Shown one piece after another: positions 5,266-34,660 of a stretch of DNA of 48,019 bases. The position numbers were made by a program, and so were the translations under genes. Source of the stretch: an uncultured Lachnospiraceae bacterium (GTDB lineage Bacteria; Bacillota; Clostridia; Lachnospirales; Lachnospiraceae); assembly GCA_947626795.1 (NCBI GenBank), contig CANQTH010000013.1, positions 1-48,019 on the forward strand, read 5' to 3'. The number at the start of each line of letters is the position of its first letter. Within the stretch, counting starts at the first letter, position 1. The notes beneath the pieces were generated by a model. The model was not told where the DNA came from and did not search any database. It saw only the letters and a program-made list of their open reading frames with translations.

Positions 5266-5289
5266 AGCCTTAGTTGAAAAATATAATTT

Positions 5290-5451
5290 GATAGAGGTCG
5301 CGCAATTCATGAGTAGTTTGCCGGATGTGGCAGGCACAGCCGATGGCGGATGAAAGGGGAGTGCGCCGAAAGGGCTTGTTTCCTGCGGCAAGTCCCTTGG
5401 GCGTAAGGCGAATAGCCTTATGACTGTCATCTGGACGGATGGAGAGCTATC
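5290..5451 (+). promoter_or_regulatory. Lysine riboswitch (L box) aptamer
   Basis: The closing stem pairs GATAG (5290-5294) with CTATC (5447-5451). The conserved L-box segments are present in order: AGAGGTCGCGC, GAGTAGT, the GCGCCGAAAGG block, and TGACTGTCAT followed by GGATGGAGAGCTATC. Lysine binding represses lysine-pathway genes by early termination or translation block, which fits dapA about 220 nt downstream. The aptamer is about 162 nt, near the usual size. Confidence 0.92.
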
Positions 5452-5482
5452 GGAGAGTTATGCGGATATTTGATATCTTTGA

Positions 5483-9014: not shown

Positions 9015-9659
<645 letters not shown>

Positions 9660-9670
9660 GAGAAAAAGAA

Positions 9671-9696
9671 AGAGTGCCAAAAGGTGTACGTTTTGA
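9671..9696 (+). repeat. Left recombination site of putative invertible segment
   Basis: Left arm AGAGTGCCAAAA, core GGTGTACG (9683-9690), right arm TTTTGA. The inner arms CAAAA and TTTTG are palindromic, as expected for binding of a recombinase dimer. The central dinucleotide is GT. Confidence 0.75.
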
Positions 9697-9818
9697 CAAC
9701 ATCCACATATGTTCCTATCCGAAAAGAAAAACATCAAAATCAACGGATATTTTTATAAAAATTTTAAAATATAAGAACATGGAGAATTAATCCAAGCTTA
9801 ATCCAAGCGAAAAAACCC

Positions 9819-9846
9819 TTGCATATGTCATAAAATGTGGTAAAAT
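9819..9846 (+). promoter_or_regulatory. Promoter for the glycan operon inside the invertible segment
   Basis: TTGCAT (9819-9824), a 16-nt spacer and TAAAAT (9841-9846). It points toward the gene at 10030. Confidence 0.6.
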
Positions 9847-9854
9847 AACGAGGG

Positions 9855-9922
9855 AAGTGCCGATGACGCATGCGTCAAGAGGCATTTGACGAGTATCTCC
9901 ATCGAGACGATAGTCGAGATGG
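9855..9922 (+). promoter_or_regulatory. Structured leader RNA with two hairpins
   Basis: Hairpin 1 pairs AAGTGCC (9855-9861) with GGCATTT (9881-9887) and contains the 14-nt perfect palindrome TGACGCATGCGTCA (9864-9877). Hairpin 2 pairs CCATC..GAC with GTC..GATGG (9899-9922) across tandem G-A/A-G mismatches and a GATA loop. No T tract follows either, so they are not ordinary terminators. A role in antitermination or protein binding is inference. Confidence 0.5.
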
Positions 9923-9941
9923 TAAAATGTTTTAGGGATTT

Positions 9942-9967
9942 AGAGTGCCAAAACGTACACTTTTTGA
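9942..9967 (-). repeat. Right recombination site of putative invertible segment
   Basis: Left arm AGAGTGCCAAAA, core CGTACACT (9954-9961), right arm TTTTGA. Compared with the left site the arms match in direct orientation while the core is inverted; the central dinucleotide is AC, the complement of GT. Confidence 0.75.
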
Positions 9968-10029: not shown

Positions 10030-11157
10030 ATGGAATATTATGACAAAATTATTATAGGCGCTGGCTGGTATGGGCTGTATTCCGCATTATTTTGCGGGCA
10101 GAAAAAACAGAAAGTCTTAGTCTTAGAATGTGATTCAGAGCCATTTCAGCGTGCCACTTATATTAATCAGGCACGCGTCCACCAGGGATATCATTATCCG
10201 CGTTCCATCTCAACTGCCATGAAATCAGCTGGGTATTTTGAAAGATTTAACAAAGATTATGGCTTTTGTATTAATCGGGAGTTTGAGAAGATATATGCGA
10301 CGTCCAGCCAGTATTCCTGGTCTGATGGGAGGCAGTTCAAGAATTTTTGCAAAGCGGCAGGCATCCCATGCGAAGAACTTCATCCGGAACAATTTTTTAA
10401 GGAACAAATGTGTGACGGGGCGTTTCTTACCAGGGAGTATACGTACGATGCAATGCTGTTAAAGGATTACCTTCTTGAAAAATTGAAGCCTTTGCGGAAT
10501 GTTGAGATTAAGTATGGCGTAAAGATCACCAGGATTGAGAAGCTGCAGGATGCATATGAAGTTTATGCGGATGGGGACGTATGCCGCACAGGGTTTCTGC
10601 TAAATGCGGCGTATGCAGGGACGAACCAGGTTCTTGATCTGGTCGGATATGAGAAATTTGCCATTAAATATGAACTGTGTGAGATCATTCTTTGTGATGT
10701 GAATGAAAAGTTGAGGCAGTATGGCTTTACTGTTATGGACGGGCCTTTTTTTTCAATCATGCCATTTGGGAAGACGGGATTTCATTCCCTTACATCCGTT
10801 ACATTTACGCCGCATACGACAAGTTACGATGCTTTGCCTGTATTTGCCTGCCAGGAAAAAAGCGGAGGATTTTGTTCCAGAGAGAGATTGGGCAACTGCA
10901 ATGATTGCCCGGCAAAGCCTCAAACAGCATTCCCTTATATGGCAAATCTGGCGAAGAAATATCTGAAAGATGAATTTAAGTTTCAGTATCGGACGTCTCT
11001 TTTTTCTATGAAGCCAATCCTTGCAAGTTCGGAAATTGATGATTCTAGGCCAACTGTAATAAAGACCTATTCGAAGAATCCGACATTTGTCGGGGTGCTT
11101 TCAGGGAAAATAAATACAGTTTATGATCTGGATGAGGTATTGGATGATGGGGAATAA
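10030..11157 (+). CDS. FAD-dependent oxidoreductase of a glycan operon
   Basis: 375 aa. The N-terminus KIIIGAGWYGLYSALF contains the dinucleotide-binding GxGxxG at residues 10-15, followed by VLVLECD, whose acidic end fits binding of the FAD ribose. The body resembles the DAO/amine-oxidase-like FAD family, and KINTVYDLDEVL near the C-terminus fits the second FAD contact. A cysteine-containing stretch (CSRERLGNCNDCP, around residues 280-292) may bind metal. Substrate unknown; as first gene of a sugar operon it may oxidise or rearrange a nucleotide- or lipid-linked sugar, but that is inference. It lies about 60 bp downstream of the invertible promoter segment. The AT-rich codon use differs from the dap genes. 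Confidence 0.7.
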   Translation: MEYYDKIIIGAGWYGLYSALFCGQKKQKVLVLECDSEPFQRATYINQARVHQGYHYPRSISTAMKSAGYFERFNKDYGFCINREFEKIYATSSQYSWSDGRQFKNFCKAAGIPCEELHPEQFFKEQMCDGAFLTREYTYDAMLLKDYLLEKLKPLRNVEIKYGVKITRIEKLQDAYEVYADGDVCRTGFLLNAAYAGTNQVLDLVGYEKFAIKYELCEIILCDVNEKLRQYGFTVMDGPFFSIMPFGKTGFHSLTSVTFTPHTTSYDALPVFACQEKSGGFCSRERLGNCNDCPAKPQTAFPYMANLAKKYLKDEFKFQYRTSLFSMKPILASSEIDDSRPTVIKTYSKNPTFVGVLSGKINTVYDLDEVLDDGE

Positions 11158-12085
11158 GGAAAAAAATTTTGTTTCGGCGGTTATTTATGTGCATAATGAA
11201 GAGGACAGAATAAGGGAATTTTTGAAAATGATGATTCAGGCGCTCGAAGGGAATTTTGAGCATTCAGAGATCATATGCGTAAATGATAGCTCGGATGATA
11301 AGAGCGTGGATATCATTCGGGAGGTGAGCCAAAAGGCAGAAACTACAAATATTTCCGTTATAAATATGAGTTATTTCCATGGTGTTGAAATTGCCATGAG
11401 GGCCGGCGTGGATATTTCAATTGGTGATTTTGTTTTTGAATTTGATAGCGTGGCCCTGGATTTTGGGGAAGAGGAGATCATGGGCATTTACCGAAGGTCG
11501 CTTCAGGGATATGACATTGTAAGTTCTGTGCCGGATCAAAAGGAAAAATTCACGTCAAAGGTATTTTATTGGATATTCGATCGGTTTTCAGCCTTTCCCT
11601 ATCAAATGAAAACGGAAAGGTTTCGGATCCTTAGCAGACGTGTCATAAACCGCATCGCTTCTATGAATAAGGCCGTGCCATATCGAAAGGCTGTTTATGC
11701 GAATCAGGGATTGAAAACAGATCGGGTTGCTTATGAGGCTAAGGGCAGGGTGGAAGGCAAGCGGGATAGGCAGGAAAAAGCGTATAAGGTTGGGCTTGCG
11801 ATTGATTCCTTATTGTTATTTACAGAGATTGGATATAAAGTTTCGGCGGTATTGACCGGGCTGATGATGTTGATCTCTGTGTTTATGTTGGGGTATGCCG
11901 TTGTTGTTTTTGCTATGGCGCATCCTGTTGCAGGATGGACGACCACGATCTTATTCCTGTCAATTGCATTTTTTGGAGTGTTTGCGATTTTGACAGTTGT
12001 GGTCAAGTACCTGCAATTATTGATAAATTTTGAGTTTAAGCGGAAATATTATAGTTTTGAAGGAATAGAGAAACTTACGAAATAA
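11144..12085 (+). CDS. Family 2 glycosyltransferase with C-terminal membrane helices (GtrB/DPM-like)
   Basis: About 313 aa. The GT-A fold starts with FVSAVIYVHNEEDRIREFL, then VNDSSDDKSVDI and the acidic FEFDSVALDFGEEE region for nucleotide sugar and metal. Two hydrophobic helices follow near the C-terminus (AVLTGLMMLISVFMLGYAVV and TTILFLSIAFFGVFAILTVV). This layout is typical of enzymes that put a sugar on undecaprenyl phosphate at the inner membrane face. ATG 11144 follows GATGAGG with suitable spacing and overlaps the end of the previous gene; the frame opens upstream at 11123. Confidence 0.8.
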   Translation: MMGNKEKNFVSAVIYVHNEEDRIREFLKMMIQALEGNFEHSEIICVNDSSDDKSVDIIREVSQKAETTNISVINMSYFHGVEIAMRAGVDISIGDFVFEFDSVALDFGEEEIMGIYRRSLQGYDIVSSVPDQKEKFTSKVFYWIFDRFSAFPYQMKTERFRILSRRVINRIASMNKAVPYRKAVYANQGLKTDRVAYEAKGRVEGKRDRQEKAYKVGLAIDSLLLFTEIGYKVSAVLTGLMMLISVFMLGYAVVVFAMAHPVAGWTTTILFLSIAFFGVFAILTVVVKYLQLLINFEFKRKYYSFEGIEKLTK

Positions 12086-12097
12086 GGGGGGATGGGA

Positions 12098-13027
12098 ATG
12101 ACCGCATTGGTAGGATATACGGGTTTTGTTGGAAGCAATATATATGCGGCTGCAGGGGATAAGATTGACGCTGTATATAATTCAAAGAATATAGAAGAGG
12201 CATATGGAACAGATCCTGATCTGCTGATATATGCAGGGCTGCGCGCTGAAAAATACTTGGCGAACAATGCTCCGGAAAAAGATATGGAGCTTATATTACA
12301 GGCAGAAAATAATATCGCTAAGATCAACCCAAAAAAATTGGCGCTTATCTCAACGATCGATGTATTTAAGGTTCCAAAGAACGTTGACGAAAATTCTGAA
12401 ATTGATACAGAAAATTTGCATACTTATGGATATAACAGATATCAGTTGGAACTCTGGGCAAGAGAAAAATATCCGGATGCGTTGATCATAAGATTGCCCG
12501 GGCTTTTTGGCAAGAACATAAAGAAGAATTTTATCTATGATCTTATGAACATAATTCCATTTATGCTTAAGGCAGAAAAATTTGAGGAGCTGTCAGAACA
12601 AGATCCGGAGATCAGGAAATATTATGAACTGCAGGAGAACGGATTTTATAAGGTTCGTGTAGAGGATAAAGACAGGGAATTGCTGAAAGAAAAGTTTAAA
12701 ACTCTGGGATTTTCCGCCCTTAATTTTACAGATAGCAGAAGCAAGTATCAGTTTTATGATCTGGGAAGATTATGGGGAGATATGCAGACTGCTCTTGGCG
12801 CAGGGATCACAATGTGGCATCCGGCAACAGAGCCTGTATCAGCAGGAGAGGTATATGAATATTTGACAGGAGAAAAGTTTTTAAATGAGCTTAAAGGAAC
12901 TCCGGCTGACTACGATTATAAAACGATTTACGGGGAGCTGTTTGGAGGAAACGGGGGATATATATGCGGCAAAGAACAAGCACTTTCAGATATCAGGGAT
13001 TTTGTAGGAGGGAAGAGTAATGGCTAA
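12098..13027 (+). CDS. NAD(P)-dependent sugar epimerase/dehydratase-like (extended SDR)
   Basis: 309 aa. The Rossmann start MTALVGYTGFVGSNIY has the GxxGxxG of extended short-chain dehydrogenases acting on nucleotide sugars. The region LALISTIDVFKVP corresponds to the strand with the active-site Ser/Thr. The catalytic Tyr-x-x-x-Lys is not obvious: TYGYNRYQLE gives YxxxR where lysine is expected, so activity may be altered. I place the start at ATG 12098, 6 nt after AAGGGGGG, rather than ATG 12092, which abuts it. The stop overlaps the start of the next gene by 8 nt. It probably prepares the donor sugar for the operon. Confidence 0.7.
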   Translation: MTALVGYTGFVGSNIYAAAGDKIDAVYNSKNIEEAYGTDPDLLIYAGLRAEKYLANNAPEKDMELILQAENNIAKINPKKLALISTIDVFKVPKNVDENSEIDTENLHTYGYNRYQLELWAREKYPDALIIRLPGLFGKNIKKNFIYDLMNIIPFMLKAEKFEELSEQDPEIRKYYELQENGFYKVRVEDKDRELLKEKFKTLGFSALNFTDSRSKYQFYDLGRLWGDMQTALGAGITMWHPATEPVSAGEVYEYLTGEKFLNELKGTPADYDYKTIYGELFGGNGGYICGKEQALSDIRDFVGGKSNG

Positions 13028-15416
13028 ACTGGAAAAATGGAAGAGGACATTATTTTGGATCGTATTTATAATTGTCGCCATAAGGATCGTATATATTGGA
13101 TTCCGCGGAGAATTGAACAAAGAATATTACACGTCAATGGCATATGACTTGAATGCTGCTGAAGGAGTCCCATGTCAGAACTTATCCGAAAGTTTCATTA
13201 GCCAGGAAGGGCGCTTAAATAGCCTGGAACTTATATTTAATAATGTGGCGGATGATAAAGCGGGTGCGGTCACGCTTGGCATATGGAAGGGAGGGGCATT
13301 GCTTTATCAAACAAACATTTCTTTAAGCACGGTTAATAATGGAGAATGGAAAAGGGTCGTACTTAATGCGGAAATGCAGTGGAATATGGAATATACGATA
13401 ACGCTCAATGCCAATGAAGAATGTACGCAGATTCCGACTGTATATGTAGTCGCCGCAGGGGCAACCGAGATTACAGCGGCATATAGTGGAGATGATATGC
13501 TTCCTGGCGCGATTGCGATTAATTTTGGCTATTTAAGGAAGCCTGGTATTTTTGATCGGCTTTCCGTGATATCGTTATGGATTTTATTTGTGGCCGCGTC
13601 CTTTTTTGTATTGCGTTATTTTGAGAAGATGTTAGAGGCTGTTAAAGGCATATATCGGTATTTTGCCTCAAGAGTGAATGAGGCGGTCCTGCTGGCAGCA
13701 TTGGAATTGCTGTCCTGCCTTATCATGATCAGCAGCAGCGGGATAGAGTTTCAAGAGCCGACAAAGATCATTTTGTATATCATATCTTTGCTTTCCGTGG
13801 TAAACTATGCGGAGAAGAGGGCGTACATAAAAAATCTGATCGACAGGCCGCAGAAAAAGGCTTTTCTATATTTCCTGTATTTGTATTCGGCATTTGCGCT
13901 GACAGGCCAGAGGCTCTTGGCTTATCCGCTGGCATTGAAGCTGACAGTGGCCAGGATATTTGTCTTTGCGGTAACGGTTTTTTGGTTTGTTCCGGTAGTC
14001 AATACGCTTTTGTATTATATGGAAGCGGCCTGGAAACGGGCTTTTGGCACGGAAGTGAAACAGAAGACGATCGTTTTTGTTGCTTTGTGCGTCCTGGCTC
14101 TGTGGCTTCCTGCCATTTATAATCTGATCGCAAATAATCCTGGAATATCTAGCGCTGATACAGAGGGCTGCATGGTTAATCTAGCCCAGAACCTGTATGG
14201 GGTGAGTGATTGGCATCCGGCATTTTACAGTATGGTTTTGCACGTGATCGAAAAGATCTCAAATACTACCTATGCGGTCATTGCCGTCCAGTATTTTTTC
14301 TGGGCATATGTGGTGGCCGAGCTTCTTTTATATTTGCGGAAAAAGGGGATGAAGGAAAGCGTTTTATTGGGAGCGGCTGTTTTTGCCGGATGCAATGCCG
14401 GGAATTTTATGCATATAAACACAATATGGAAGGATATCCCGTATGCCCTTTCCGTGCTATGGGCTTTTGTGGTCATCGTAAAGTTAGTGACCGATCATGA
14501 AGAGTATAGATATAAGAGATATGTTTATCTGGAACTTGTGGTCTCCATGGTGGGTGTTTATTTTTATAGAAAAAATGGAGTGGTAACTTTTCTTGTGATC
14601 ACCGTTGGCATCCTGATAGCCCTTAGGAAAAACCGCAGGGTCTGGGGGGCGATGGCGATGACGATGGCTTTGATCGTCATGGTCAAAGGCCCGGTTTATC
14701 ACTATTTTGAGGTGCAGGATACGGGAAGGACGGGCATTTATATCGGCTTGGGACAGGATGTTTTAGGAGTCTATTATGCCGGAGGGGAAGTGTCAGAAGA
14801 TACTCTTGAAATGGTAGGGATGATGACAGGATATAATACAACTGAATATCAGTATACGCCTACCTGGTCGTATGCAGCATATGATGTGGATGTTACCCCA
14901 GGACAGTTTATTGCGAATTATCTGGATACTTTTATTAAAAATCCGGTCATTATGCTGCGGGCGGTCATCAACCGGGAGGATGCGCTCTGGGATATTTATG
15001 CGGGGCAGGATGCGCATTTGGGATGCGTCAATTATTCAGGAACAATGGATAGCGACCAGCCTTGGGCAGAGCAGTACCCCGCCAGGCGTTATATGAGCTT
15101 ATCGGAAGAAATGTCGGCGGCGACTGCCTATACGGCAGGATCGCAGTGGATATCCGCGATAGAATGGAGATGCGGGCTATTTACATTGCTGGGATTGGTA
15201 GCGGCCGCGTTTGTGATCTTACGAAGAGGCATAAAAAAATATCTTGTCATTTTATGCCCGCTTGCGGGCCATGTCTTGAGCTTGTTATTGTCGACGGGAT
15301 GGTCGGATTTTCGGTATTTTTGGCCGATGAATTTAATGAATATGTCCTTAATCCTGGTTGTGTTGGTGATCATGCGGCAAGGGAAAGAGGAAAAGGAAGG
15401 TGAAGGATTGAAATGA
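13020..15416 (+). CDS. Large polytopic membrane protein, probable GT-C-type glycosyltransferase (DUF6020-like)
   Basis: 798 aa. One helix near residues 10-28 is followed by an extracellular domain of about 150 residues rich in beta-strand patterns, then roughly 12 membrane helices. The segments SSADTEGCMVNLAQNLYG, SDWHPAFYSMVLHVIEKI and NTIWKDIPYALSVLWAF, plus a late SDFRYFWPMNLMNMS, recall DUF6020-like proteins, which are presumed lipid-sugar-dependent glycosyltransferases acting outside the membrane. Asp and Glu residues in extracellular loops would be catalytic candidates. It overlaps its neighbours by 8 and 4 nt, so it is translationally coupled. In a Gtr-like scheme it would be the transferase that decorates a surface polymer; this is inference. 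Confidence 0.65.
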   Translation: MAKLEKWKRTLFWIVFIIVAIRIVYIGFRGELNKEYYTSMAYDLNAAEGVPCQNLSESFISQEGRLNSLELIFNNVADDKAGAVTLGIWKGGALLYQTNISLSTVNNGEWKRVVLNAEMQWNMEYTITLNANEECTQIPTVYVVAAGATEITAAYSGDDMLPGAIAINFGYLRKPGIFDRLSVISLWILFVAASFFVLRYFEKMLEAVKGIYRYFASRVNEAVLLAALELLSCLIMISSSGIEFQEPTKIILYIISLLSVVNYAEKRAYIKNLIDRPQKKAFLYFLYLYSAFALTGQRLLAYPLALKLTVARIFVFAVTVFWFVPVVNTLLYYMEAAWKRAFGTEVKQKTIVFVALCVLALWLPAIYNLIANNPGISSADTEGCMVNLAQNLYGVSDWHPAFYSMVLHVIEKISNTTYAVIAVQYFFWAYVVAELLLYLRKKGMKESVLLGAAVFAGCNAGNFMHINTIWKDIPYALSVLWAFVVIVKLVTDHEEYRYKRYVYLELVVSMVGVYFYRKNGVVTFLVITVGILIALRKNRRVWGAMAMTMALIVMVKGPVYHYFEVQDTGRTGIYIGLGQDVLGVYYAGGEVSEDTLEMVGMMTGYNTTEYQYTPTWSYAAYDVDVTPGQFIANYLDTFIKNPVIMLRAVINREDALWDIYAGQDAHLGCVNYSGTMDSDQPWAEQYPARRYMSLSEEMSAATAYTAGSQWISAIEWRCGLFTLLGLVAAAFVILRRGIKKYLVILCPLAGHVLSLLLSTGWSDFRYFWPMNLMNMSLILVVLVIMRQGKEEKEGEGLK

Positions 15417-16201
15417 ACTTATCCATATCAAATATAGGATGGTCAGAAGAGGAGGATGAAAAGGCGTATTCCCTCATGGAACAATACGGATTCAAAGGAT
15501 TGGAGATCGCCCCGACAAGGATATTCCCGGAAGACCCATATGGGAACTTAAAACAGGCGTCTGCCTGGGCTGAAAGGATTGCGCGGGAGAACGGTTTTTC
15601 CATTCCATCCATGCAGTCAATCTGGTATGGCAGGCAGGAAAAAATTTTCGGGACAGAAAAAGAGCGGGAATTGCTTTTAGGACATACAAAAAAAGCAATT
15701 GATTTCGCCGTGGCGATACGATGCAAAAATCTTGTGTTAGGATGTCCGAAAAATCGGGTGATCCCGGAAGGAGCGGATCCGGAAGTGGGAAGATGTTTCT
15801 TTCGGGAACTTGGGGAGTATGCCGCTTTAAAAGGGACAGCGATAGGATTCGAGGCGAATCCGTCGGTTTATCATACGAATTATATGAATGAGACAAGCGA
15901 GGCTTTTGACTTGATAGAAGCCGTTGGCTCTGCGGGGTTCCGTTTGAATTTGGATGTAGGAACGATGGTTCAAAATGGGGAGCAGGCTGAAGAGATCAAA
16001 GGGAAAGTCAAATTGATCAATCACGTTCACATAAGCGAGCCAGGGCTAAAGAAGATTGAGAAAAGGGAATTGCATCGGAGGCTTTTGGAAAATTTGGCAT
16101 CGGAGGGTTATGAGGGATATATTTCCATTGAGATGGGCAAGGAAAGCGGTTTAGAGGAGATAGAAAATGCCATGCGTTACGTAAAGGAGATTTTTGGATG
16201 A
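15413..16201 (+). CDS. Sugar phosphate isomerase/epimerase-like TIM barrel
   Basis: 262 aa of the xylose-isomerase-like TIM-barrel family (AP endonuclease 2 superfamily). Characteristic pieces are YGFKGLEIAPTRIF near residue 23, IGFEANPSVY with the metal-binding Glu, LNLDVGTMVQN with Asp, VHISEPGL with His and YISIEMG with the last Glu. Members isomerise or epimerise sugars using a divalent metal in the cytoplasm. The ATGA overlap with the upstream gene shows tight coupling. The substrate is unknown; in this operon it probably helps make the transferred sugar. Confidence 0.7.
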   Translation: MNLSISNIGWSEEEDEKAYSLMEQYGFKGLEIAPTRIFPEDPYGNLKQASAWAERIARENGFSIPSMQSIWYGRQEKIFGTEKERELLLGHTKKAIDFAVAIRCKNLVLGCPKNRVIPEGADPEVGRCFFRELGEYAALKGTAIGFEANPSVYHTNYMNETSEAFDLIEAVGSAGFRLNLDVGTMVQNGEQAEEIKGKVKLINHVHISEPGLKKIEKRELHRRLLENLASEGYEGYISIEMGKESGLEEIENAMRYVKEIFG

Positions 16202-16995
16202 CGGTATATGGGAGGCAGCCTGGAGTCCCAGGATTCCAGTGCATGGAGTATGCAGGAAAAACGAAGGATTATGCGGTCCTTATCCCTATCATCAATGAAG
16301 GGGACAGGATCATTAAAGAATTGAAACGCGCGTACAAACATCATGTGGCAGATCATGCCGATCTTGTTATTTGCGATGGAGGCTCAACAGACGGATGTAC
16401 GGAGGAAAGCAGGCTTCGGAAATTAAAGGTGAATGCATTGCTTGTGAAGCAAGACGTCGGGAAGCAAGGGGCGCAGCTCCGCATGGGCATCTGGTGGGCC
16501 TTAGAGAGAGGGTATAAAGGGATCATTACGATTGATGGGAATAATAAGGACAGTATTGAAGATGTCCCGCATTTTATTGAAAAATTGCAGGAAGGGTATG
16601 ATTTTGTCCAGGGATCAAGGTTCATAAAAGGCGGGAAAGCGATCCGCACGCCATTGGCCCGTGCCATAGCCGTAAAATTTGTCCATGCGCCAATGATCTC
16701 CCTGGCTGCGCGCCATAGATTTACCGATACTACAAACGCATATCGGGCATATTCGGCTAAGTATCTTCAGGATGGGCGCGTGGCTCCTTTGCGCGATGTA
16801 TTCATGACATATGAGCTGCTGGCGTATCTTTCTGTACGTGCGGCACAGTTGGGATATAAAGTGTGCGAGATACCTGTAACGAGGGCTTATCCCAAGTCAG
16901 GGGAAACGCCGACAAAAATCAGTTTTTTTAAAGGAAATTTAGAATTGATGAAAATACTGCTGTGCAATGCGTTTGGGGCATATGATCCAAAATAA
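16198..16995 (+). CDS. Family 2 glycosyltransferase (dolichol-phosphate-mannose-synthase-like)
   Basis: 265 aa. The GT-A fold is seen in YAVLIPIINEGDRIIKELK, VICDGGSTDG and ITIDGNNKDS (the D-x-N/D metal motif), plus the later FVQGSRFIKGG. No clear C-terminal membrane helices are present, so it may be peripheral. It overlaps the upstream gene by ATGA. The operon thus has two GT2 enzymes, which could charge undecaprenyl phosphate with two sugars or one precursor in two steps. Acceptor and donor cannot be read from sequence. Confidence 0.8.
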   Translation: MTVYGRQPGVPGFQCMEYAGKTKDYAVLIPIINEGDRIIKELKRAYKHHVADHADLVICDGGSTDGCTEESRLRKLKVNALLVKQDVGKQGAQLRMGIWWALERGYKGIITIDGNNKDSIEDVPHFIEKLQEGYDFVQGSRFIKGGKAIRTPLARAIAVKFVHAPMISLAARHRFTDTTNAYRAYSAKYLQDGRVAPLRDVFMTYELLAYLSVRAAQLGYKVCEIPVTRAYPKSGETPTKISFFKGNLELMKILLCNAFGAYDPK

Positions 16996-17008
16996 GGCGG
17001 TGGTGTGG

Positions 17009-17350
17009 ATGATGGAATCTTTTCGGCGGAATAAAAAAGGGATCTTGTTAATGCTGGTCTCTTCCGCGTGCGTCTGCGTCGGGCAGTTGTTTTGGAAAAT
17101 ATCAGCGGAAAAAGGACTTTTGTTTTTAATGGCAGGTTTTTGTTTTTATGGGATTGGGGCAATGCTGATGATTTTCGCATATCGTTTTGGTAAATTGTCC
17201 GTATTGCAGCCAATGCTAAGCCTTAATTATGTGATGGGCGCCATATTGGCCATAGCGGTATTAGGGGAGAGTGTGACTCTGTCAAAATGTATTGGCATAT
17301 TGGTGATCGTAAGCGGCGTGATCTTGATCGCTGGAGGTGATGAGGAGTGA
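17009..17350 (+). CDS. Small four-helix EamA/SMR-like membrane protein, first of a pair
   Basis: 113 aa with four hydrophobic helices: GILLMLVSSACVCVGQLFW, FLMAGFCFYGIGAMLMIFAY, a central LSVLQPMLSLNYVMGAILAI and a last CIGILVIVSGVILIAGG. VLQPMLSLNYVMGAILA matches the EmrE/ArnE-type half of the drug-metabolite transporter superfamily. The upstream frame is open to 16967, but AAGGCGG at 16994-17000 supports ATG 17009. Paired with the next gene it resembles ArnE/ArnF, which flip lipid-linked aminoarabinose; a flippase for undecaprenyl-phosphate sugar is a reasonable inference. Confidence 0.75.
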   Translation: MMESFRRNKKGILLMLVSSACVCVGQLFWKISAEKGLLFLMAGFCFYGIGAMLMIFAYRFGKLSVLQPMLSLNYVMGAILAIAVLGESVTLSKCIGILVIVSGVILIAGGDEE

Positions 17351-17697
17351 TTGGATATCTTACGGGAATATTGGCAATGACATTTTTAGGGGCGGCCGCG
17401 TCGTTATTTTTAAAACGTGCGTCAGGATCGGAAAAAATATGGAATTTGATAAAGGATTCTAATTTGTACGTTGGCGGTTTTTTATATCTGGTGTCTGCGG
17501 TCTTTAATATTTTGCTTTTAAAATATTTGGATTATTCTGTGGTGTTGCCGTTAACGTCATTAACGTATGTATGGACGATGCTGTTATCTTACTTGGTTTT
17601 AAAAGAGAAAATTACGGGAAAGAAGATAGTTGGAGTGGTTTTTATCTTGGCAGGTGGGATATGTGTTTCGATTGCGGATAAGATTCCATTGCGCTAA
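17347..17697 (+). CDS. Small EamA/SMR-like membrane protein, second of a pair
   Basis: 116 aa, four helices, GTG start at 17347 overlapping the upstream stop and preceded by GATGAGGA. YLVSAVFNILLLKYLDYSVV and LPLTSLTYVWTMLLSYLVL carry the DMT-family pattern, and the end is KIVGVVFILAGGICVSIAD. Two adjacent, translationally coupled half-size DMT proteins usually form a heterodimer. It is the last gene of the operon, 17 bp before a strong terminator. The likely role is inner-membrane translocation of the lipid-linked sugar made by the GT2 enzymes. Confidence 0.75.
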   Translation: MIGYLTGILAMTFLGAAASLFLKRASGSEKIWNLIKDSNLYVGGFLYLVSAVFNILLLKYLDYSVVLPLTSLTYVWTMLLSYLVLKEKITGKKIVGVVFILAGGICVSIADKIPLR

Positions 17698-17923: not shown

Positions 17924-20143
17924 ATGGCGTCAGAAGAATTAACAAAAGGAATTGTTTCTGGAAAATTAAGTGCATTAGAAGGGTATTCCTCAAAACAAAA
18001 CGTGGATCATAATGGAATTATATGGTTTAAGGAAGATAGTTATAAGGGGACGGCTTACGATTGGATCAAAGATATTTTTGCCAAAGCATCGAAAAAGCAA
18101 ACAATGTTAGGAAGAGGAATCCCTGATTTTGTAGTTGTAAAAGAGAGATCGAATGTTATCGTTGTAGTAGAATGCAAAGCAGAGATAAATGGCGTTAGCA
18201 GTAAACATTCGATGTTTGATAATGTGGAAGAGTATAAGCTATATGGTTATGGAACCCCGACAGAAACGGAGCTGTATGCAATAAATGGAGCATTGTATTA
18301 TGCTACTTTTTTAAATCAAAAATATGATGTTGTTGCAGTTGGGGTATCTGGTCAAAGTAAGTCTGAATTAAGGATTACATCATTTGTATTGCCGAAAGGC
18401 GGAGAAATATCAGACATCGAAATAATGGAAGACGGTGGGTATAATGATGGATTGGTTTCTATTGAACAGTATGAAAAAGAGGTTGATCTTGTATTGAATC
18501 GATTTGCTGCGACAGAGGAAGAGATTAGAAAGGAACTTAGAAAATATACTTTATCTTGTGCAAATTTTTTGCGTGCAAATGGAATAGAGGATAATTCTAA
18601 AGCAGGATTTGTGTCAGCGATTGTACTGGGGTTGACAAATAAGAAGTCAAGACTATATAGAGAAACAAAATCCGCTATTGATAGGAAAATGGAATCCAAG
18701 TCCAAAAAAATGCTAGATGACCCAATTGGAAAAGATGCAGTAAAAATGTTGAAGGCATCTTTATATGGGGATGGCAAAGATGAATATGAGGACGATTATA
18801 TTGAGGGTGTGTGGGATATAGATAAAATTCCGAAAGGGAAAAGAAAATCTTTAAAAAAATTTTATGATGTTTTATTGAGTAAAGACGAATTAACAAAAGC
18901 GCCGAAAGGACAAAATACGTATTTCAATGATGGAGATACAGTTTTATCATGCTGTATTTATTCGCTGTATGTAAATGTTATTGAGATATTGGAGCATTAT
19001 AAAGGTATTGATATTATGGGAGAATTTTATATCACTTTTTTGCGCTTTACGAAAGGAAACGCAAAAGAAAAAGGCATTGTTTTGACTCCTAAGCATATCA
19101 CAGATTTATTTTGTGACTTGGCTGAATATTATAGTGGACAGCCATTTTCAGAAAAAACAAAAATAATAGATACATGTTGTGGCACAGGGGCATTTTTGAT
19201 TTCTGCGCTTGAACGAATCAAGGAGAATATTCGTCGCCAGTTTATGAGTGAAAAGCAAAAGGAAGAAAAATATCAATATGCACGGGTAAATAGTCTGATC
19301 GGGGTAGAAAGAGATGCATCCATGTATGCTCTTGCATATGCGAATATGCGTTTTCATGGAGACGGAAAGGCGAATTTATTTAATTGTTCATCCCTTATGT
19401 CAGATTCGTATAATCCAATAGACGATAGCGGCATGACATATATGCAAGATGGGAAAAAAGTTCCGCTATCAGAAGCATTAGAGGCATTTGGGGACATCGA
19501 CGTAGCTATGATCAATCCTCCATATTCTATAGGGACAAATGCAAATAAGATAAGCAAGCCATATCCGGATGATACGCCGCCAGAAGTAGTAATGCAAAAA
19601 GGACAGGATGAATTGGATTTTATAGCGTCTATGTTACATTATATTAAGGTCGGCGGGATAGGAATAGCAATTGTTCCTATGTCATGCGCAGGGAATAGTG
19701 GGAGAAATTTACGTAAGGAAATATTAAAGCATCATACTTTATTAGCTTGCATGACAATGCCAGCGAACTTGTTTTTTGATAGCCATGTGGGAACGGCTAC
19801 GTGTATTATGGTATTTAAAGCGCATATTCCACATGATGAAAAGAAGGCCGTTTTTTTTGCAAGGTGGCAGGATGATGGATTTAAAGTAATTCCACATAAT
19901 GGGAGAAAAGACACTGGCAGGTGGTCAAATATTCGTGTTCAATGGATGGAACAGATCGATGGAGTTGCTGATCCGAATGACTATATTTTTGTAAAACATA
20001 AGATAAAAACAGGCGATGAGGCGCTTGCAGAAGCATATATTAAGACGGACTATAGCAAATTATCTGAAGAAGATTTTGAGCGTACCTTAAAAAAATATGC
20101 ATTATATAAGTATATGAGCGAACAAGGAATGTTGGAGGAATAA
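17924..20143 (+). CDS. Restriction nuclease-N6-adenine methylase fusion (type IIB/IIG, BcgI-A-like)
   Basis: 739 aa. The N-terminal PD-(D/E)xK nuclease shows GRGIPDFVVV with P67-D68 and VVVECKAE with Glu83-x-Lys85. After a helical linker comes a type-I-like N6-adenine methyltransferase: LTPKHITDLF, motif I IDTCCGTGAFLISAL near residue 416, and catalytic MINPPYSIG near residue 531. The fused nuclease and methylase plus a separate two-domain specificity protein downstream match BcgI-type systems, which cut and methylate asymmetric bipartite sites using SAM. GGAGG precedes ATG 17924. Its AT-rich composition differs from the flanking housekeeping genes. Confidence 0.85.
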   Translation: MASEELTKGIVSGKLSALEGYSSKQNVDHNGIIWFKEDSYKGTAYDWIKDIFAKASKKQTMLGRGIPDFVVVKERSNVIVVVECKAEINGVSSKHSMFDNVEEYKLYGYGTPTETELYAINGALYYATFLNQKYDVVAVGVSGQSKSELRITSFVLPKGGEISDIEIMEDGGYNDGLVSIEQYEKEVDLVLNRFAATEEEIRKELRKYTLSCANFLRANGIEDNSKAGFVSAIVLGLTNKKSRLYRETKSAIDRKMESKSKKMLDDPIGKDAVKMLKASLYGDGKDEYEDDYIEGVWDIDKIPKGKRKSLKKFYDVLLSKDELTKAPKGQNTYFNDGDTVLSCCIYSLYVNVIEILEHYKGIDIMGEFYITFLRFTKGNAKEKGIVLTPKHITDLFCDLAEYYSGQPFSEKTKIIDTCCGTGAFLISALERIKENIRRQFMSEKQKEEKYQYARVNSLIGVERDASMYALAYANMRFHGDGKANLFNCSSLMSDSYNPIDDSGMTYMQDGKKVPLSEALEAFGDIDVAMINPPYSIGTNANKISKPYPDDTPPEVVMQKGQDELDFIASMLHYIKVGGIGIAIVPMSCAGNSGRNLRKEILKHHTLLACMTMPANLFFDSHVGTATCIMVFKAHIPHDEKKAVFFARWQDDGFKVIPHNGRKDTGRWSNIRVQWMEQIDGVADPNDYIFVKHKIKTGDEALAEAYIKTDYSKLSEEDFERTLKKYALYKYMSEQGMLEE

Positions 20144-20147
20144 CTCT

Positions 20148-21272
20148 ATGGATACCAGTAATTGGGTAGATTTTTATTTAGGAAAAATATTCGAGGTCAA
20201 AAAAGGGAAACGGTTGACGAAAGAAAATATGACTCCTGGTGATCTGAATTTCCTGGGCGCAATACAAGGAAGAAACGGAATAAGAGAAAAGATCAATGAA
20301 GAACCACTTTTTCAAGGTAATTGCATATCTGTAAATTATAATGGATGCGGAGTTGGCGAAGCTTATTACCAAAAGGAACCATTTTGGGCATCGGATGATG
20401 TGAATGTTTTATTTTTACGGGAACATGAAATGAACGAAGCATTGGCGATGTTTTTTATAACAATCATTAGAAATGAAAAATACAGGTTTAGTTATGGACG
20501 TAAGTGGAACAAAGAACAGATGGAAAAAACAATTCTAAAGCTTCCGGCACGGATGGTTCATGGAGAATATGTAATTGATGAAAGAAATTTTTATTCGGAC
20601 GAAGGGTATATTCCTGATTTTTCGTTTATGGAAAAGTTTATATTATCATTGAATGATGATGTAAAAGACATACCAGACTATTTTTTGGAAGAAGGGTATG
20701 ATAAAGCTTGTTGGTATATGGATAACATAGATCAGTATGAATTTGAAAAACAATATTCTGCTTCAGCGCTGCATAGAAAAATTTCATTACAAGATCGAGA
20801 ATGGAAATATTTTTGCCTTGGAGATAAGAAATATTTTGATGTCCGGAGGGGAGATTCAGTATACATAAAAAATATGGCACTTGGTGAAGTGCCTTATGTA
20901 AGTACAACACAGGAGAATAATGGGATTACGGCTTATGTGGCGGATAGTAATCGAAAAGGGAATGCAATTACCCTGGCATATGATGGAAGTATAGGAGCAT
21001 GCTTTTATCAAGAGGAAGATTTTTTTGCCAGCGAAAAAATCGTAACAATAGAAACGGTTCAGTATCCAATGAATAAATATATTGCAATGTTTTTTATCCC
21101 GATTTTAAAGTTAGAATCAGAGAAGTATTCATATGGTGGAAGAAAGTGGACGGTTGAAAAGCAAATGAAAGAGACATTGATCATGTTGCCGATCGATGAA
21201 AAAAGCAACGATCCTGACTATATATTTATGGAAGATTTTATAAAGTCGCTTCCATTTAGCTGTAATATTTAG
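20148..21272 (+). CDS. Restriction-modification specificity subunit (HsdS/BcgI-B-like)
   Basis: 374 aa with two homologous halves, each a target-recognition domain followed by a spacer region. The halves share FxxGKxxxVKKGKR-like and FCLGDKKYFDVRRG openings and matching closings, YGRKWNKEQMEKTILKLP (about residue 115-133) and GGRKWTVEKQMKETLIMLP (about 325-345). Such proteins choose the bipartite DNA target for the methylase-nuclease. The gene starts 4 nt after the upstream stop, with GGAGGAATAA inside the end of that gene, so both are made together. The recognition sequence cannot be predicted. Confidence 0.85.
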   Translation: MDTSNWVDFYLGKIFEVKKGKRLTKENMTPGDLNFLGAIQGRNGIREKINEEPLFQGNCISVNYNGCGVGEAYYQKEPFWASDDVNVLFLREHEMNEALAMFFITIIRNEKYRFSYGRKWNKEQMEKTILKLPARMVHGEYVIDERNFYSDEGYIPDFSFMEKFILSLNDDVKDIPDYFLEEGYDKACWYMDNIDQYEFEKQYSASALHRKISLQDREWKYFCLGDKKYFDVRRGDSVYIKNMALGEVPYVSTTQENNGITAYVADSNRKGNAITLAYDGSIGACFYQEEDFFASEKIVTIETVQYPMNKYIAMFFIPILKLESEKYSYGGRKWTVEKQMKETLIMLPIDEKSNDPDYIFMEDFIKSLPFSCNI

Positions 21273-21315
21273 TTCACAAAGGAAATTACGATATATCATG
21301 CAAGGGGGGAGCGTC

Positions 21316-22131
21316 ATGTTTGCGAGGCTGCAGCTTGAATTGCAGTTAGAGTCAGATGAAATCATATCTTATCAAAAAGCAGTTCTTTTGCAGAGCGTTC
21401 TGATGGAGCGGGTAGATCCTGCTTATGCGGAGCGGCTTCATCAATCGGTATTACATCCCTATCGGCAGTCAGTCGTCCGACGGGAAAATAAGAATATCTG
21501 GACGGTATGCACCACAAGCGGGGAAGCTTATCAGAATATCCTGCTTCCTTTGCAGGACAGCGGCTTTTCAGAATTTGTCCTGGAACATGACAGCAGGAAA
21601 GTGTCCGTTGTGGACAGGTGGTTAGAGCAGATCGAGCGAAAGCGGTTCATGGAAGAATATTATCTGAAAGATGCGGATCGTTATTTCCGTATTTTGTTTA
21701 AGACGCCCACAGCCTTTAAGCGCCAGGGCGAGTATGTGTCCTTTCCGGATCTAAGGCTGATCTATCAGAGCCTTATGAAAAAATACGATGCTTCCGCTGA
21801 ACACGAGACGGTTGAGAGCGAAGAATTGTTGGAACAGCTTGTGCAGTACAGCAGGATCGTAAGGTACGATCTGCATAGCTGCAGTTATTCCGTGCATGGA
21901 GCGAGGGTTCCAGCCTTTATGGGACAGATGCAGATCCGCGTAGCCGGGCCGCACGCAATGGTCAATTTTGTGAGCCTGCTTCTGCATTTCGGGGAATATT
22001 CCGGAATCGGGATAAAAACAGCCATGGGGATGGGAGATTTTGCACTGGCGGATGCGAAGAGCCGGAAGCGTCCGCCAGGCGCGGCCAAAAGCGAAGAGCA
22101 GGAAAAATATCCTGCGGACCGCAGCGGATGA
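21316..22131 (+). CDS. cas6: CRISPR-associated endoribonuclease Cas6
   Basis: 271 aa RAMP-fold protein. The C-terminal glycine-rich signature is clear in SGIGIKTAMGMGDF (about residues 228-241). Cas6 cuts the precursor transcript inside each repeat, leaving an 8-nt 5' tag for the Csm complex. The repeats here have a GC-rich stem (CCCC-GAAA-GGGG) just upstream of the expected cut. ATG 21316 has AAGGGGGGA upstream; the longer frame from 21298 is less likely. It is the first gene of the csm operon. A histidine in the N-terminal region would be the usual catalytic base (candidates around HQSVLHPYR). Confidence 0.88.
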   Translation: MFARLQLELQLESDEIISYQKAVLLQSVLMERVDPAYAERLHQSVLHPYRQSVVRRENKNIWTVCTTSGEAYQNILLPLQDSGFSEFVLEHDSRKVSVVDRWLEQIERKRFMEEYYLKDADRYFRILFKTPTAFKRQGEYVSFPDLRLIYQSLMKKYDASAEHETVESEELLEQLVQYSRIVRYDLHSCSYSVHGARVPAFMGQMQIRVAGPHAMVNFVSLLLHFGEYSGIGIKTAMGMGDFALADAKSRKRPPGAAKSEEQEKYPADRSG

Positions 22132-22170
22132 GCGGAAGAAGAGAGTTCTGAAAACAGGAAGGAGGAGAAT

Positions 22171-24567
22171 ATGCAGACAGAGAAAATGCAGCTGATCGTT
22201 GGGGCGCTGCTCCACGATATTGGCAAAGTGATTTACAGGCAGGGAGACGGGCGTAAGCACAGTATAAGCGGGTATGAATTTTTGAGCCGGGAAGCCCATA
22301 TAGAAGAAAAAAACGTACTGGATCCCGTGCGTTTCCACCACAAAGCGGAATTGCAGAAGGCGGACGTTCCGGCGGATTCTTTTGCATATATTGCCTATAT
22401 TGCAGATAATATTGCAGCCGGGGCGGACCGCCGGAAAAACGACGGGGAAGAGAAGGGATTTTCAAAAGAGATCCCATTGGAATCCGTATTTAATATTTTG
22501 AATGGAAATGATAAAAAACTGCACTACCGCCGCGGCATACTGGAAGATACCGCAGATAAGATCCAGGTTCCGACCGATCAGCAAGAAGCGTTTGACGAGG
22601 GTTTTTATTATAAGGTGAAGCAGAATCTTTTGAACAATTTTCTTGGCATATTTTGGGAAGAAGAGTATCTGAATTCCATTTTGGAGATCCTGGAAGGGAA
22701 CTTGTCCCTGGTTCCATCTTCTACGGCCAGAGACGAGCTGGCGGATATATCGCTGTATGACCATGTGAAGCTTACGGCGGCGGCCGCCTCATGCATCTAC
22801 GACGATCTGGAAGAGAAGGGGATACGGGACTATCGCGCCTGCCTGTTTGAAAAAGAGAAAGAATTTAAGCAGGAAAAAACGTTTTTGCTCTGCTCTATGG
22901 ACATTTCCGGCATCCAGAAGTTCATCTATACGATACATAGCGAAGGGGCGCTGCGGAACCTGCGCGCACGTTCTTTTTACTTAAGCATCATGATGGAGCA
23001 TATCATCGACACGCTGCTTCAAAGGCTGGAACTGTCAAGGGCGAACCTGATCTATTCCGGGGGCGGGCACTGCTATCTTCTGCTGGCGAATACAAAGAAG
23101 ACAAAGCAGACGGTAGAAGAATTTGAAAAAGAGCTGAACCAATGGCTGCTGGAGAATTTTGACATAGCGCTGTATGTGGCGGCGGGGGCGGTGGAATGCA
23201 GTGCGTCTGAGCTTCGGAATGAGCCGAAAGGAAGCTATTCGGAAATTTTCCGGCGGCTTGGCAATATGCTTTCCCAAAAGAAATCTTCGCGGTATTCCGC
23301 AGGCCAGATCCGTATGTTGAATCGGAAAAGGAATGCAGACCATACGCGGGAATGCAAAGTGTGCAAGCGGCTGGACCGCCTGGAGGAAGACGGAAACTGC
23401 ACGATCTGTTCCGCTATATTGGGCATCTCGAAAGATATTTTGTACAGTGATTTTTTTGTGGTCTTGTCAGAAGAAGAAAAAGGAGCGCTGCCGCTGCCGT
23501 TTCATGCCTGGATGGTGGCGGAGAATAAAAGCGGATCGGAAGCGCGGATGGGGCAGGAAGCATATCTGCGCGCTTACGGGAAAAATAAGATGTTTTCCGG
23601 CAAGCACATTTCCGGGAAACTCTGGGTTGGAAATTATACGACGGGCGAGACCTTTGAAGAACTGGCAGCTCAGGCGGAAGGAATAAAAAGGATCGGGATT
23701 TTAAGAGCAGATGTGGATAATCTGGGAAGAGCGTTTGTGTCCGGTTTTGAAAGCGAAAAGAATGGAGATAAGTATGTGACGCTGTCCAGGACGGCGGCAT
23801 TGTCCAGGCAGTTGTCCATGTTTTTCCAGTATCATATCAATGCGATACTGGCGCATCCGAAATTTTCACTGGACGGAAAGCCAAAGAAGGAAAGAAAGGC
23901 GGCGATCGTCTATTCCGGCGGAGACGACCTGTTCCTGGTGGGAGCGTGGAATGAGATCGTAGAGCTTGCCGTAGATATCCAAAGGGCTTTCCGGGAATAT
24001 ACGGAAGGAACGCTGACGCTGTCGGCGGGGATCGGGATATACCAGCCGGGATTCCCGATCCATGCCAGCGCGGCGGAAGTGGCGGGATTAGAGGAAGATT
24101 CCAAATCGCTGCCGGGGAAGGATGCGGTTACATTCCTGCCAGATGGCGCGTGGCATTCAGAGACCGGGGAGGATGGCGCAGAATGCCGGGTGAATGACGC
24201 GACCTATTCCTGGAAGACATTTCAGGAAGAAACGCTGGGGGAAAAGTTCCAGGCGGTTTACGCGTTTTTCCAAAATTCGGAGGACAAAGGGAAGAGCTTT
24301 TTGTACCATCTGCTGGAATTGGTGCGGAAACGGGAGGACAAGCTGAACCTTGCCAGATATGTTTATCTGCTGACCCGAATGGAGCCCGGCGAGCGTTCCA
24401 GCCCGGAAGAGAAGCAGAGGTATCAGGAATTTTCCAGAAAAATGTACCAGTGGATGCAGGATGAAAAAGACTGCCGGCAGTTGAAGACAGCGATCAACCT
24501 GTATGCATATTACGTCAGGGAAGAAAAAGAATCGCGGGGCTTGAGCCGTGAGAAGGAGGAAACGTGA
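22171..24567 (+). CDS. cas10: Cas10/Csm1, signalling and DNase subunit of type III-A Csm complex
   Basis: 798 aa. The N-terminal HD nuclease motif LLHDIGK includes His15-Asp16. A zinc-finger with Cys395, Cys398, Cys410 and Cys413 lies between the Palm domains. The second Palm holds the cyclase motif YSGGDD with Gly583-Gly584-Asp585-Asp586, intact for making cyclic oligoadenylates when target RNA is bound. The Csm6 gene downstream, with CARF and HEPN motifs, is the expected receptor. An AAGGAGGAG site precedes ATG 22171. Both active sites look functional, so DNA cleavage and second-messenger synthesis are both expected. Confidence 0.95.
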   Translation: MQTEKMQLIVGALLHDIGKVIYRQGDGRKHSISGYEFLSREAHIEEKNVLDPVRFHHKAELQKADVPADSFAYIAYIADNIAAGADRRKNDGEEKGFSKEIPLESVFNILNGNDKKLHYRRGILEDTADKIQVPTDQQEAFDEGFYYKVKQNLLNNFLGIFWEEEYLNSILEILEGNLSLVPSSTARDELADISLYDHVKLTAAAASCIYDDLEEKGIRDYRACLFEKEKEFKQEKTFLLCSMDISGIQKFIYTIHSEGALRNLRARSFYLSIMMEHIIDTLLQRLELSRANLIYSGGGHCYLLLANTKKTKQTVEEFEKELNQWLLENFDIALYVAAGAVECSASELRNEPKGSYSEIFRRLGNMLSQKKSSRYSAGQIRMLNRKRNADHTRECKVCKRLDRLEEDGNCTICSAILGISKDILYSDFFVVLSEEEKGALPLPFHAWMVAENKSGSEARMGQEAYLRAYGKNKMFSGKHISGKLWVGNYTTGETFEELAAQAEGIKRIGILRADVDNLGRAFVSGFESEKNGDKYVTLSRTAALSRQLSMFFQYHINAILAHPKFSLDGKPKKERKAAIVYSGGDDLFLVGAWNEIVELAVDIQRAFREYTEGTLTLSAGIGIYQPGFPIHASAAEVAGLEEDSKSLPGKDAVTFLPDGAWHSETGEDGAECRVNDATYSWKTFQEETLGEKFQAVYAFFQNSEDKGKSFLYHLLELVRKREDKLNLARYVYLLTRMEPGERSSPEEKQRYQEFSRKMYQWMQDEKDCRQLKTAINLYAYYVREEKESRGLSREKEET

Positions 24568-24959
24568 TGGAAATAACGGAAAAAACTTATGTTGAGAAAG
24601 CGGAAAAGGCTGTTTTGTCGCATAAGAACAGAAAAAATGAGAGAACGGGAAAAACAACTCCCATGGTTACGACGTCGAAGATCCGGAATCTGCTGGCAAT
24701 GGCCGGGGATATTTACAATGAGATATTGCGGTGGGAAGGGGAGACATTGAGCGACGAACTCTGCGGCAGGGTCGATTATCTGAGGATCCGCGTCTTATAT
24801 GAAGCGGGCCGGGATCCGGCGGTAAAGGATTTTGTTGAAAAAGCAGGGATTTTAAAATGCTTAGAAGAGATAAAAGGGAGCAAGAAGCAGTATCTGTTGT
24901 TCCATCGGTATATGGAAGCACTGGTGGCATACCACAGATTTCATGGCGGAAAGGATTGA
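24567..24959 (+). CDS. csm2: Csm2, small subunit of type III-A complex
   Basis: 130 aa, mostly helical, with the Csm2 pattern TSKIRNLLAMAGDIYNEI followed by LRIRVLYEAGRDPAVKDF. Csm2 lines the effector along the target RNA together with Csm3. The cas10 TGA and the csm2 ATG overlap by one base at 24567, with AGGAGG 7 nt upstream; an in-frame GTG one codon earlier is less likely. Confidence 0.92.
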   Translation: MEITEKTYVEKAEKAVLSHKNRKNERTGKTTPMVTTSKIRNLLAMAGDIYNEILRWEGETLSDELCGRVDYLRIRVLYEAGRDPAVKDFVEKAGILKCLEEIKGSKKQYLLFHRYMEALVAYHRFHGGKD

Positions 24960-24974
24960 TCAGGAGGTAGAATC

Positions 24975-25634: not shown

Positions 25635-25636
25635 GG

Positions 25637-33112: not shown

Positions 33113-33189
33113 ATTGCGCCCATAAGATGGAAATGGCGTAAAAGTGCAGGGAAGATGAAAGGAAAAATGAATGCGAAAGAAGGGAGAGC

Positions 33190-34191: not shown

Positions 34192-34194
34192 GAG

Positions 34195-34509: not shown

Positions 34510-34660
34510 GACGGCGCAAAGGTGAGGGGCGGTCTGCCATTTTGGCTGTCTGGCGGCATGGGCTTCAGCCGATAGCCGATATGCAGCAGGACAAGAGGGA
34601 CGGTCATTTTGGCTGCCTTGCGGCATTGCGTGGAAAAGACGGAAAGGAGAACTGGATGTT

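What the first reader, a model, noticed from the sequence alone, without database searches (positions are those of the whole stretch)
9671..9967. Phase-variable invertible promoter controlling a surface-glycan operon
Two 26-bp sites share arms (AGAGTGCCAAAA and TTTTGA) in the same orientation while their 8-bp cores are reverse complements (GGTGTACG versus CGTACACT, one mismatch; central dinucleotides GT and AC). For serine recombinases the core sets the outcome, so this arrangement predicts inversion. The ~270-bp segment contains TTGCAT-16-TAAAAT pointing at eight glycan genes, and a serine recombinase gene lies 11 bp away. All of this is read directly; switching itself is inferred.
Basis: partly seen in the sequence, partly recalled or inferred. 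Interest (0 to 1): 0.8.

Follow-up and report, generated by a model that had tools for sequence, protein, structure and literature searches.

The report
Broken serine-recombinase promoter switch, stuck ON
In a gut bacterium, a promoter that could once be flipped back and forth to turn a sugar-coat gene cluster on or off now sits in the ON direction beside a damaged flipping enzyme, and comparison with relatives places it in a family of such switches that usually sit OFF.

Summary
The sites at 9671-9696 and 9942-9967 are real and beyond chance: one inverted pair of CAAAARGTGTACGTTTTG with an asymmetric GT core. They belong to a family: a small serine recombinase, two such sites, then usually a same-strand operon, seen in Lachnospiraceae, Oscillospiraceae and other Clostridia. 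Inversion is supported in a relative: G484 and G481 (one genus) share flanks, 87% and 95% identical, while the segment between the sites matches on the opposite strand, arms exchanged at the core. Of 69 deduplicated loci with site pairs, the promoter match points at the recombinase (OFF) in 51, away (ON) in 6; 12 are undecided. The window shows the mirror-image ON layout.

The three other recombinase relatives found in this draft genome have different recognition helices, two beside sites of different sequence. So this copy is most likely a phase switch frozen ON; that is inferred, not measured. An 82-bp dispersed RNA-like unit begins at its -10 box.

The parts
9671..9696 (+). Left recombination site; 18-bp core 9678-9695 with central dinucleotide GT at 9686-9687
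   Evidence: same site type beside recombinases in relatives
9942..9967 (-). Right recombination site, inverted; core 9949-9966 with AC at 9957-9958
9688..9956 (.). Invertible segment between the two cores, here in the ON orientation
   Evidence: promoter layout mirrored against seven relatives; left-site hairpin weak as found (-4.3 kcal/mol), strong if flipped (-19.8), the reverse of 38 of 46 loci not called ON
9819..9846 (+). Promoter TTGCAT-16-TAAAAT with extended -10 TGGTAAAAT (9838-9846), facing the operon
   Evidence: seven relatives carry TTGC..-17-TAAAAT or TAAGAT at the mirrored end; not listed by the generic scanner
9838..9919 (+). 82-bp dispersed RNA-like unit starting at the -10 box; TGGTAAAAT recurs at 9920-9928
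   Evidence: copies in own genome; consensus structure, 5 of 23 pairs with double-sided changes, small covariation term; no Rfam match
9074..9280 (+). N-terminal piece of the broken serine recombinase (YGYARVSS motif), then out of frame to a stop
   Evidence: (Resolvase profile 2-48)
9204..9659 (+). C-terminal piece of the broken serine recombinase (IDRLGRN, HTH with [10 protein letters not shown]), in the 9108-9659 ORF
   Evidence: (Resolvase profile 53-144; two HTH families just below their curated cut-offs)
10030..17697 (+). Eight-ORF operon: FAD oxidoreductase, GT2, RmlD-like (below cut-off), 798-aa DUF6020-like (below cut-off), TIM barrel, GT2, two EamA
   Evidence: collinear homologues of all eight in G003:C75

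Best explanation
The window holds a decayed member of a clostridial family of promoter switches. A small serine recombinase, encoded just upstream, paired two inverted CAAAARGTGTAC-type sites, cut at the GT core and flipped the promoter-bearing segment. In most family loci the promoter faces the recombinase (OFF). When flipped it faces the downstream surface or glycan operon (ON). Here the segment is in the ON orientation, the local recombinase has lost 26 nt and its reading frame, and no other recombinase found in the genome looks matched to these sites, so the operon is most likely left permanently under the ON promoter. Shown: site pair, family, a reversed segment between conserved flanks in relatives, broken gene. 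Inferred: promoter activity, ON expression, loss of switching.
For: Site pair with 0 mismatches; shuffles give a mean of 0.09 matches at the laxer 3-mismatch setting. Same site type in 11 of 29 genomes of the genus, 24 matches, against 2 matches of the reversed-pattern control in the same 29. A family recombinase ends within 20 bp of a site in 8 of 15 genus loci fetched. Of 80 loci kept from species genomes, 50 have a core-like inverted pair beside the recombinase; the first downstream ORF is on the same strand in 46 of these 50, opposite in 2, none in 2. Reversal: L250 (G484) against L251 (G481), flanks 87.1% over 692 and 95.2% over 1503 on the plus strand, segment 86.6% over 97 and 89.6% over 67 on the minus strand; in-script flip raises identities from 244 to 281 of 308 aligned columns. 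ON layout in window. Break: 26-nt gap against three relatives. Helix/site link: 184 of 200 half-sites of 52 TFYR-class loci are CAAAA or a listed one-mismatch form, 162 exact; the three other own-genome relatives are TFFDK, TFYGK, TFRYR, the last two beside sites of other sequence.
Against: No reads or second strain of this species were seen, so neither past nor present flipping of this copy is shown; the demonstrated reversal is between two species of another genus and those segments also differ by about 50 bp (129 against 179 between cores). The helix/site link is a correlation: 20 of 36 half-sites of 9 TFR-class loci and 22 of 36 of 9 other loci also fit the lax CAAAA test. An intact recombinase could be missing from this 96%-complete, 144-contig assembly, and the C129 copy is cut by its contig edge. 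G002, G011 and G018 have site pairs with no recombinase beside them, so action from a distance is possible. Three of six ON-called loci do not show the flipped-hairpin sign.
Confidence: 0.66

Rival explanations
1. The switch still works: another recombinase in the cell, or intact siblings in the population, flips the segment.
For: Three other recombinase relatives in the genome; G002, G011 and G018 hold site pairs without a neighbouring recombinase and a TFYR-type recombinase elsewhere.
Against: The three relatives have other helices; C22 and C129 sit beside their own, different sites, and C83 has no core-like pair within its 3.6-kb locus. Only the two window sites match the pattern with at most 1 mismatch in this genome.
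Confidence: 0.22
2. The 26-nt gap is an assembly or MAG artefact and the locus is an ordinary intact switch seen in its ON state.
For: Draft assembly of 144 contigs; only one genome seen.
Against: A 26-nt loss is not a typical homopolymer error (general knowledge), and the C-terminal piece is otherwise open and conserved.
Confidence: 0.09
3. The repeats are resolution or deletion sites, or recombinase operators, not inversion sites.
For: The outer arms AGAGTGC lie in the same orientation; among solved structures the family profile matches Sin and Tn3/gamma-delta resolvases best.
Against: Core dinucleotides are GT against AC, and a relative shows the segment reversed between conserved flanks.
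Confidence: 0.03

Closest known systems
Hin/Mpi-type serine-recombinase invertible promoters (Salmonella hin; Bacteroides Mpi; details recalled)
   Same: Small serine recombinase, inverted sites with a 2-bp asymmetric core, promoter on the flipped segment. One family member hits the NCBIfam Mpi model at 41 bits, far below its cut-off of 272; XisF scores higher, 51 of 375.
   Different: Recombinase lies outside and just upstream of the segment, whereas hin lies within the inverted DNA (passage of PMC2784873); sites differ; the profile matches Sin (125 bits) and Tn3/gamma-delta resolvases (up to 88) better than PDB entries named DNA-invertase (4m6f, 3uj3; 62-63 bits).
E. coli fimE/fimS (tyrosine recombinases)
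   Same: Recombinase gene beside the switch; OFF bias; a terminator downstream of fimE in phase OFF only (passages of PMC2784873, and PMC9993118). Here a hairpin just after the recombinase is stronger as found in 38 of 46 loci not called ON.
   Different: Serine, not tyrosine, recombinase; the hairpin is formed by the recombination site itself; Rho not examined; effect on recombinase mRNA untested.
C. difficile cwpV switch (RecV)
   Same: Inverted repeats 195 bp apart upstream of a surface gene, with an orientation-dependent hairpin (passages of PMC2784873).
   Different: Promoter lies outside the cwpV segment, and RecV is a tyrosine recombinase encoded elsewhere (same passages).
Firmicutes_A inverton groups 139 and 125 (PMC11892184; passages and section 8 seen)
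   Same: Clostridial invertons; group 139 lies near recombinase genes.
   Different: Group 139 is linked to a tyrosine recombinase; the motif of group 125 is in a supplement I could not read, so overlap with this family is open.

Membership tests
Serine-recombinase invertible promoter (family level) | Small serine recombinase with catalytic Arg/Ser motif and C-terminal HTH | tested here: met
   A1, 8 rows: invariant YGYxRVS and SIDRLGRN; 202-206 aa for 5 of 8, the other ORFs run longer at the N-terminus; aligned to Sin and Tn3 resolvase
Serine-recombinase invertible promoter (family level) | Inverted sites with asymmetric 2-bp core flanking the segment | tested here: met
   67 of 137 distinct recombinase ORFs had no such pair by the rule used
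Serine-recombinase invertible promoter (family level) | Both orientations of one locus exist | tested here: met
   L250 against L251 and L249, two species of one genus; not the window's species
Serine-recombinase invertible promoter (family level) | Promoter on the segment that connects to the operon in one orientation | tested here: inconclusive
   Match scoring 9 or more in 52 of 61 segments against 13% of shuffles; no RNA data
Working phase-variable switch (this window) | Intact cognate recombinase | tested here: not met
   local gene split over two frames, 26-nt gap; no intact TFYR-class copy among the relatives found in this draft genome
Working phase-variable switch (this window) | Both orientations in the population | not testable with these tools
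   no reads or second strain of the species
Hin/Gin subfamily of DNA invertases | Fis-bound recombinational enhancer | not tested
   feature given in the abstract of PMC3798978 (search listing); no search made here
fimE-like detachable terminator | Recombinase 3' terminator present only in OFF orientation | tested here: inconclusive
   hairpin stronger as found in 38 of 46 loci not called ON, 8 the other way; strong hairpin plus T-rich tail in only 10 of 46 as found against 1 of 46 flipped; of six ON-called loci window, L107, L128 show the reverse and L071, L079, L127 do not

The most novel reading that the evidence does not exclude
A large clostridial family of serine-recombinase promoter switches limits itself: in OFF the promoter fires into the recombinase gene and the recombination site forms the recombinase's 3' hairpin, while in ON both are detached, so ON cells make more recombinase and fall back to OFF. 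It is a convergent, serine-type counterpart of fimE/fimS. The window records an escape from it, frozen ON by loss of the recombinase.
Probability: 0.25. Interest if true: 0.7.

Novelty: new variant of a known kind. Interest (0 to 1): 0.55.

Why it matters
It names a recognisable module (recombinase, site pair, operon) by which many gut Clostridia probably vary surface proteins and glycans, with an OFF bias visible in assemblies. It gives a testable link between recognition helix and site, and a likely natural example of a phase switch that became constitutive. In the open-access library searched I saw no description of a serine-recombinase, GTGTAC-core inverton family in Clostridia (search listings; passages and one section of PMC11892184). 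Most subscription papers and the supplements were out of reach.

Tried and rejected
Deletion/resolution reading: rejected on core polarity. Generic promoter and terminator scan: uninformative. BLAST of the window segment against the other segments: no match, so its ON call rests on layout and hairpin. Viral contigs: 21 and 31 recombinase loci fetched; 35 of these 52 examined, 7 with an inverted pair, no reversed match. Family-wide paired-site pattern search: 2 of 397 genomes, because exact CAAAA arms and a 125-155 gap are too strict (the window itself fails it). Rfam for the 82-bp unit: none. fimE passages in PMC2845655 and PMC8777976 gave nothing useful. One search counted 61 segments including a duplicate (L077 = G004) and G002, G011, G018, which have no recombinase beside them; G018's orientation was arbitrary. 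One search leaves these out; one search dropped L077, G002 and G018, and G011 fell out because its right core did not fit the rule.

Full report
Observation. The best description is an inverted pair of the 18-bp core CAAAARGTGTACGTTTTG, at 9678-9695(+) and 9949-9966(-), with no mismatch to the pattern. Shuffled windows give a mean of 0.09 matches even when 3 mismatches are allowed. The centre of each core is GT on the left and AC on the right, so a serine recombinase that cuts a 2-bp overlap (established for these enzymes, recalled) would invert the segment. The extra arm AGAGTGC lies in the same direction at the outer left and inner right. Flipping the segment would bring the two copies together as one long palindrome at the left site.

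A family of such switches. With at most one mismatch the core occurs 24 times in 11 of 29 genomes of the genus; the backwards control gives 2 matches in the same 29. Most inverted pairs there stand 158-271 bp apart; one in G009 is 48 bp apart. In 8 of 15 loci fetched a family recombinase ends within 20 bp of a site. A ninth, distant recombinase (L050) does not have that layout. Of those 80, 50 have a core-like inverted pair beside the gene. The next ORF runs the same way in 46 of 50, the other way in 2, and none was found in 2. I scanned 56 downstream proteins, a selection of the 78 listed. No Pfam family matches more than 3 of the 56. Among the 25 of 66 families shown are glycosyltransferases, GtrII, LicD, MBOAT, S-layer, flagellin, collagen and leucine-rich repeats, beside unrelated ones such as AMP-binding, Cas12f1-like and AAA.

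Inversion seen. In G484 (L250) and G481 (L251 and a second copy, L249), one genus, the recombinase side is 87% identical over 692 bp and the downstream side 95% over 1503 bp on the same strand (L251). The segment matches on the opposite strand, 86.6% over 97 bp and 89.6% over 67 bp. The inner arms are exchanged at the core. The segments differ in length, 129 against 179 bp. Flipping L250 in a script raises the alignment to L251 from 244 to 281 identities in 308 aligned columns. Shorter reversed matches exist between other species: L071 with G003 and L073, L127 with L126, L139 with L081, L068 with L079. Such short matches are weaker evidence: L119 and L131, which match end to end in the same direction, also give a 27-bp reversed match.

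OFF bias. A promoter matrix finds a match of 9 or more in 52 of 61 segments, against 13% of shuffles. The better strand points at the recombinase in 52, away in 7, and is undecided in 2; shuffles give 38%, 36% and 26%. In 42 of those 52 the -10 box lies 11-23 bp from the recombinase-proximal site. In the deduplicated set, which also holds some viral-contig loci, 137 distinct recombinase ORFs had room downstream. 67 had no site pair, 1 was dropped for short or masked sequence, and 69 had pairs: 51 OFF, 6 ON (window, L071, L079, L107, L127, L128), 12 undecided. The binomial p of 5.7e-10 for 6 of 57 treats loci as independent, which they are not. L250 (ON by eye, TTGCAA-17-TATAAT) was found after this count.

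State of the window. The seven are a selection from the eleven other segments. G015_C44, G004_C14 and G027_C1 instead have T(A/G)GACT-17-TATAAT facing the recombinase, and G018 has no set orientation. G002 and G011, among the seven, were oriented by their downstream gene. The left-site hairpin of the window is -4.3 kcal/mol as found and -19.8 if flipped. The 46 loci not called ON average -16.6 as found and -10.4 flipped, stronger as found in 38 and weaker in 8. Of six ON-called loci, window, L107 and L128 show the reverse; L071, L079 and L127 do not.

The recombinase is broken. Pfam Resolvase positions 2-48 lie in one frame and 53-144 in another. Alignment to three relatives shows a 26-nt gap, in a stretch of about nine residues of which four are invariant in the eight intact rows. 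The catalytic-serine motif and the arginine motif are thus on different reading frames. Three further recombinase relatives exist in the genome: C83, C22, and C129, which is cut by its contig edge; a fourth match, in C122, is weak. Their helices are TFFDK, TFYGK and TFRYR. In 52 TFYR-class loci 184 of 200 half-sites are CAAAA or a listed one-mismatch form. In 9 TFR-class and 9 other loci, two of the latter with an unread helix, the figures are 20 of 36 and 22 of 36. The window's own helix is [10 protein letters not shown]. So the cognate enzyme seems lost and the switch frozen ON. This is inference, and action from a distance is not excluded: G002, G011 and G018 have site pairs with no recombinase beside them.

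Operon. All eight ORFs have collinear homologues (45-80% identity) in G003:C75, with a 2.7-kb interruption between the fifth and sixth. No CAAAA-type pair lies upstream there, at up to 4 mismatches. The first gene was found in full in 2 of 29 genomes (own and G003) and in pieces in G013. The switch is therefore a separable module. Family names come; the substrate is unknown.

The 82-bp unit. 9838-9919 begins at the extended -10 box and TGGTAAAAT recurs at 9920. The model finds 12 matches in this genome, some in tandem, 1 in G014, and weak ones in G017 and G028, so 4 of 29 genomes match. The consensus has two main hairpins and 5 of 23 pairs with double-sided changes, with a small covariation term. 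If the promoter fires, this unit becomes part of the operon's leader.

Literature. Passages and section 8 of PMC11892184 describe Firmicutes_A inverton groups, one tied to a tyrosine recombinase. Passages of PMC2784873 and PMC9993118 describe the phase-OFF terminator of fimE. Passages of PMC2845655 and PMC8777976 were also seen. Other papers were seen only as search listings with abstracts. Remaining Hin and Mpi details are recalled.

Noticed in passing
window 9838-9919 and copies in G000 contigs C2, C4, C8, C43, C62, C70, C97: 82-bp dispersed, partly tandem, structured RNA-like unit flanked by TGGTAWAAT, no Rfam match; 12 matches in this genome, 4 of 29 genus genomes; a copy in another family (G052) lies upstream of what looks like an rlmB-type gene (label by eye).
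   Followed up: partly
window 17924-36019, array 27916-32820: HsdM and HsdS genes, then Cas6 and type III-A csm genes, a CRISPR-like array with 68 copies of a 24-mer, Cas1 and Csm6.
   Followed up: no
G000:C22 (L134) and G000:C129 (L135): Two further recombinase plus inverted-site loci in the same genome, with different arms (TCTGAAAA and TACAGGAA), so the strain may carry several switches.
   Followed up: partly
loci: Recognition helix of the recombinase tracks the half-site sequence (TFYR with TCAAAA; many TFRY with TRCARRAA), a possible specificity code.
   Followed up: partly
G481:C8 (L251) and G481:C51 (L249): Two near-identical copies of one switch locus in one genome, both OFF.
   Followed up: no
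window 5284-5457 and 44181-47336: Lysine riboswitch and a 1051-aa leucine-rich-repeat protein with an fn3 domain.
   Followed up: no
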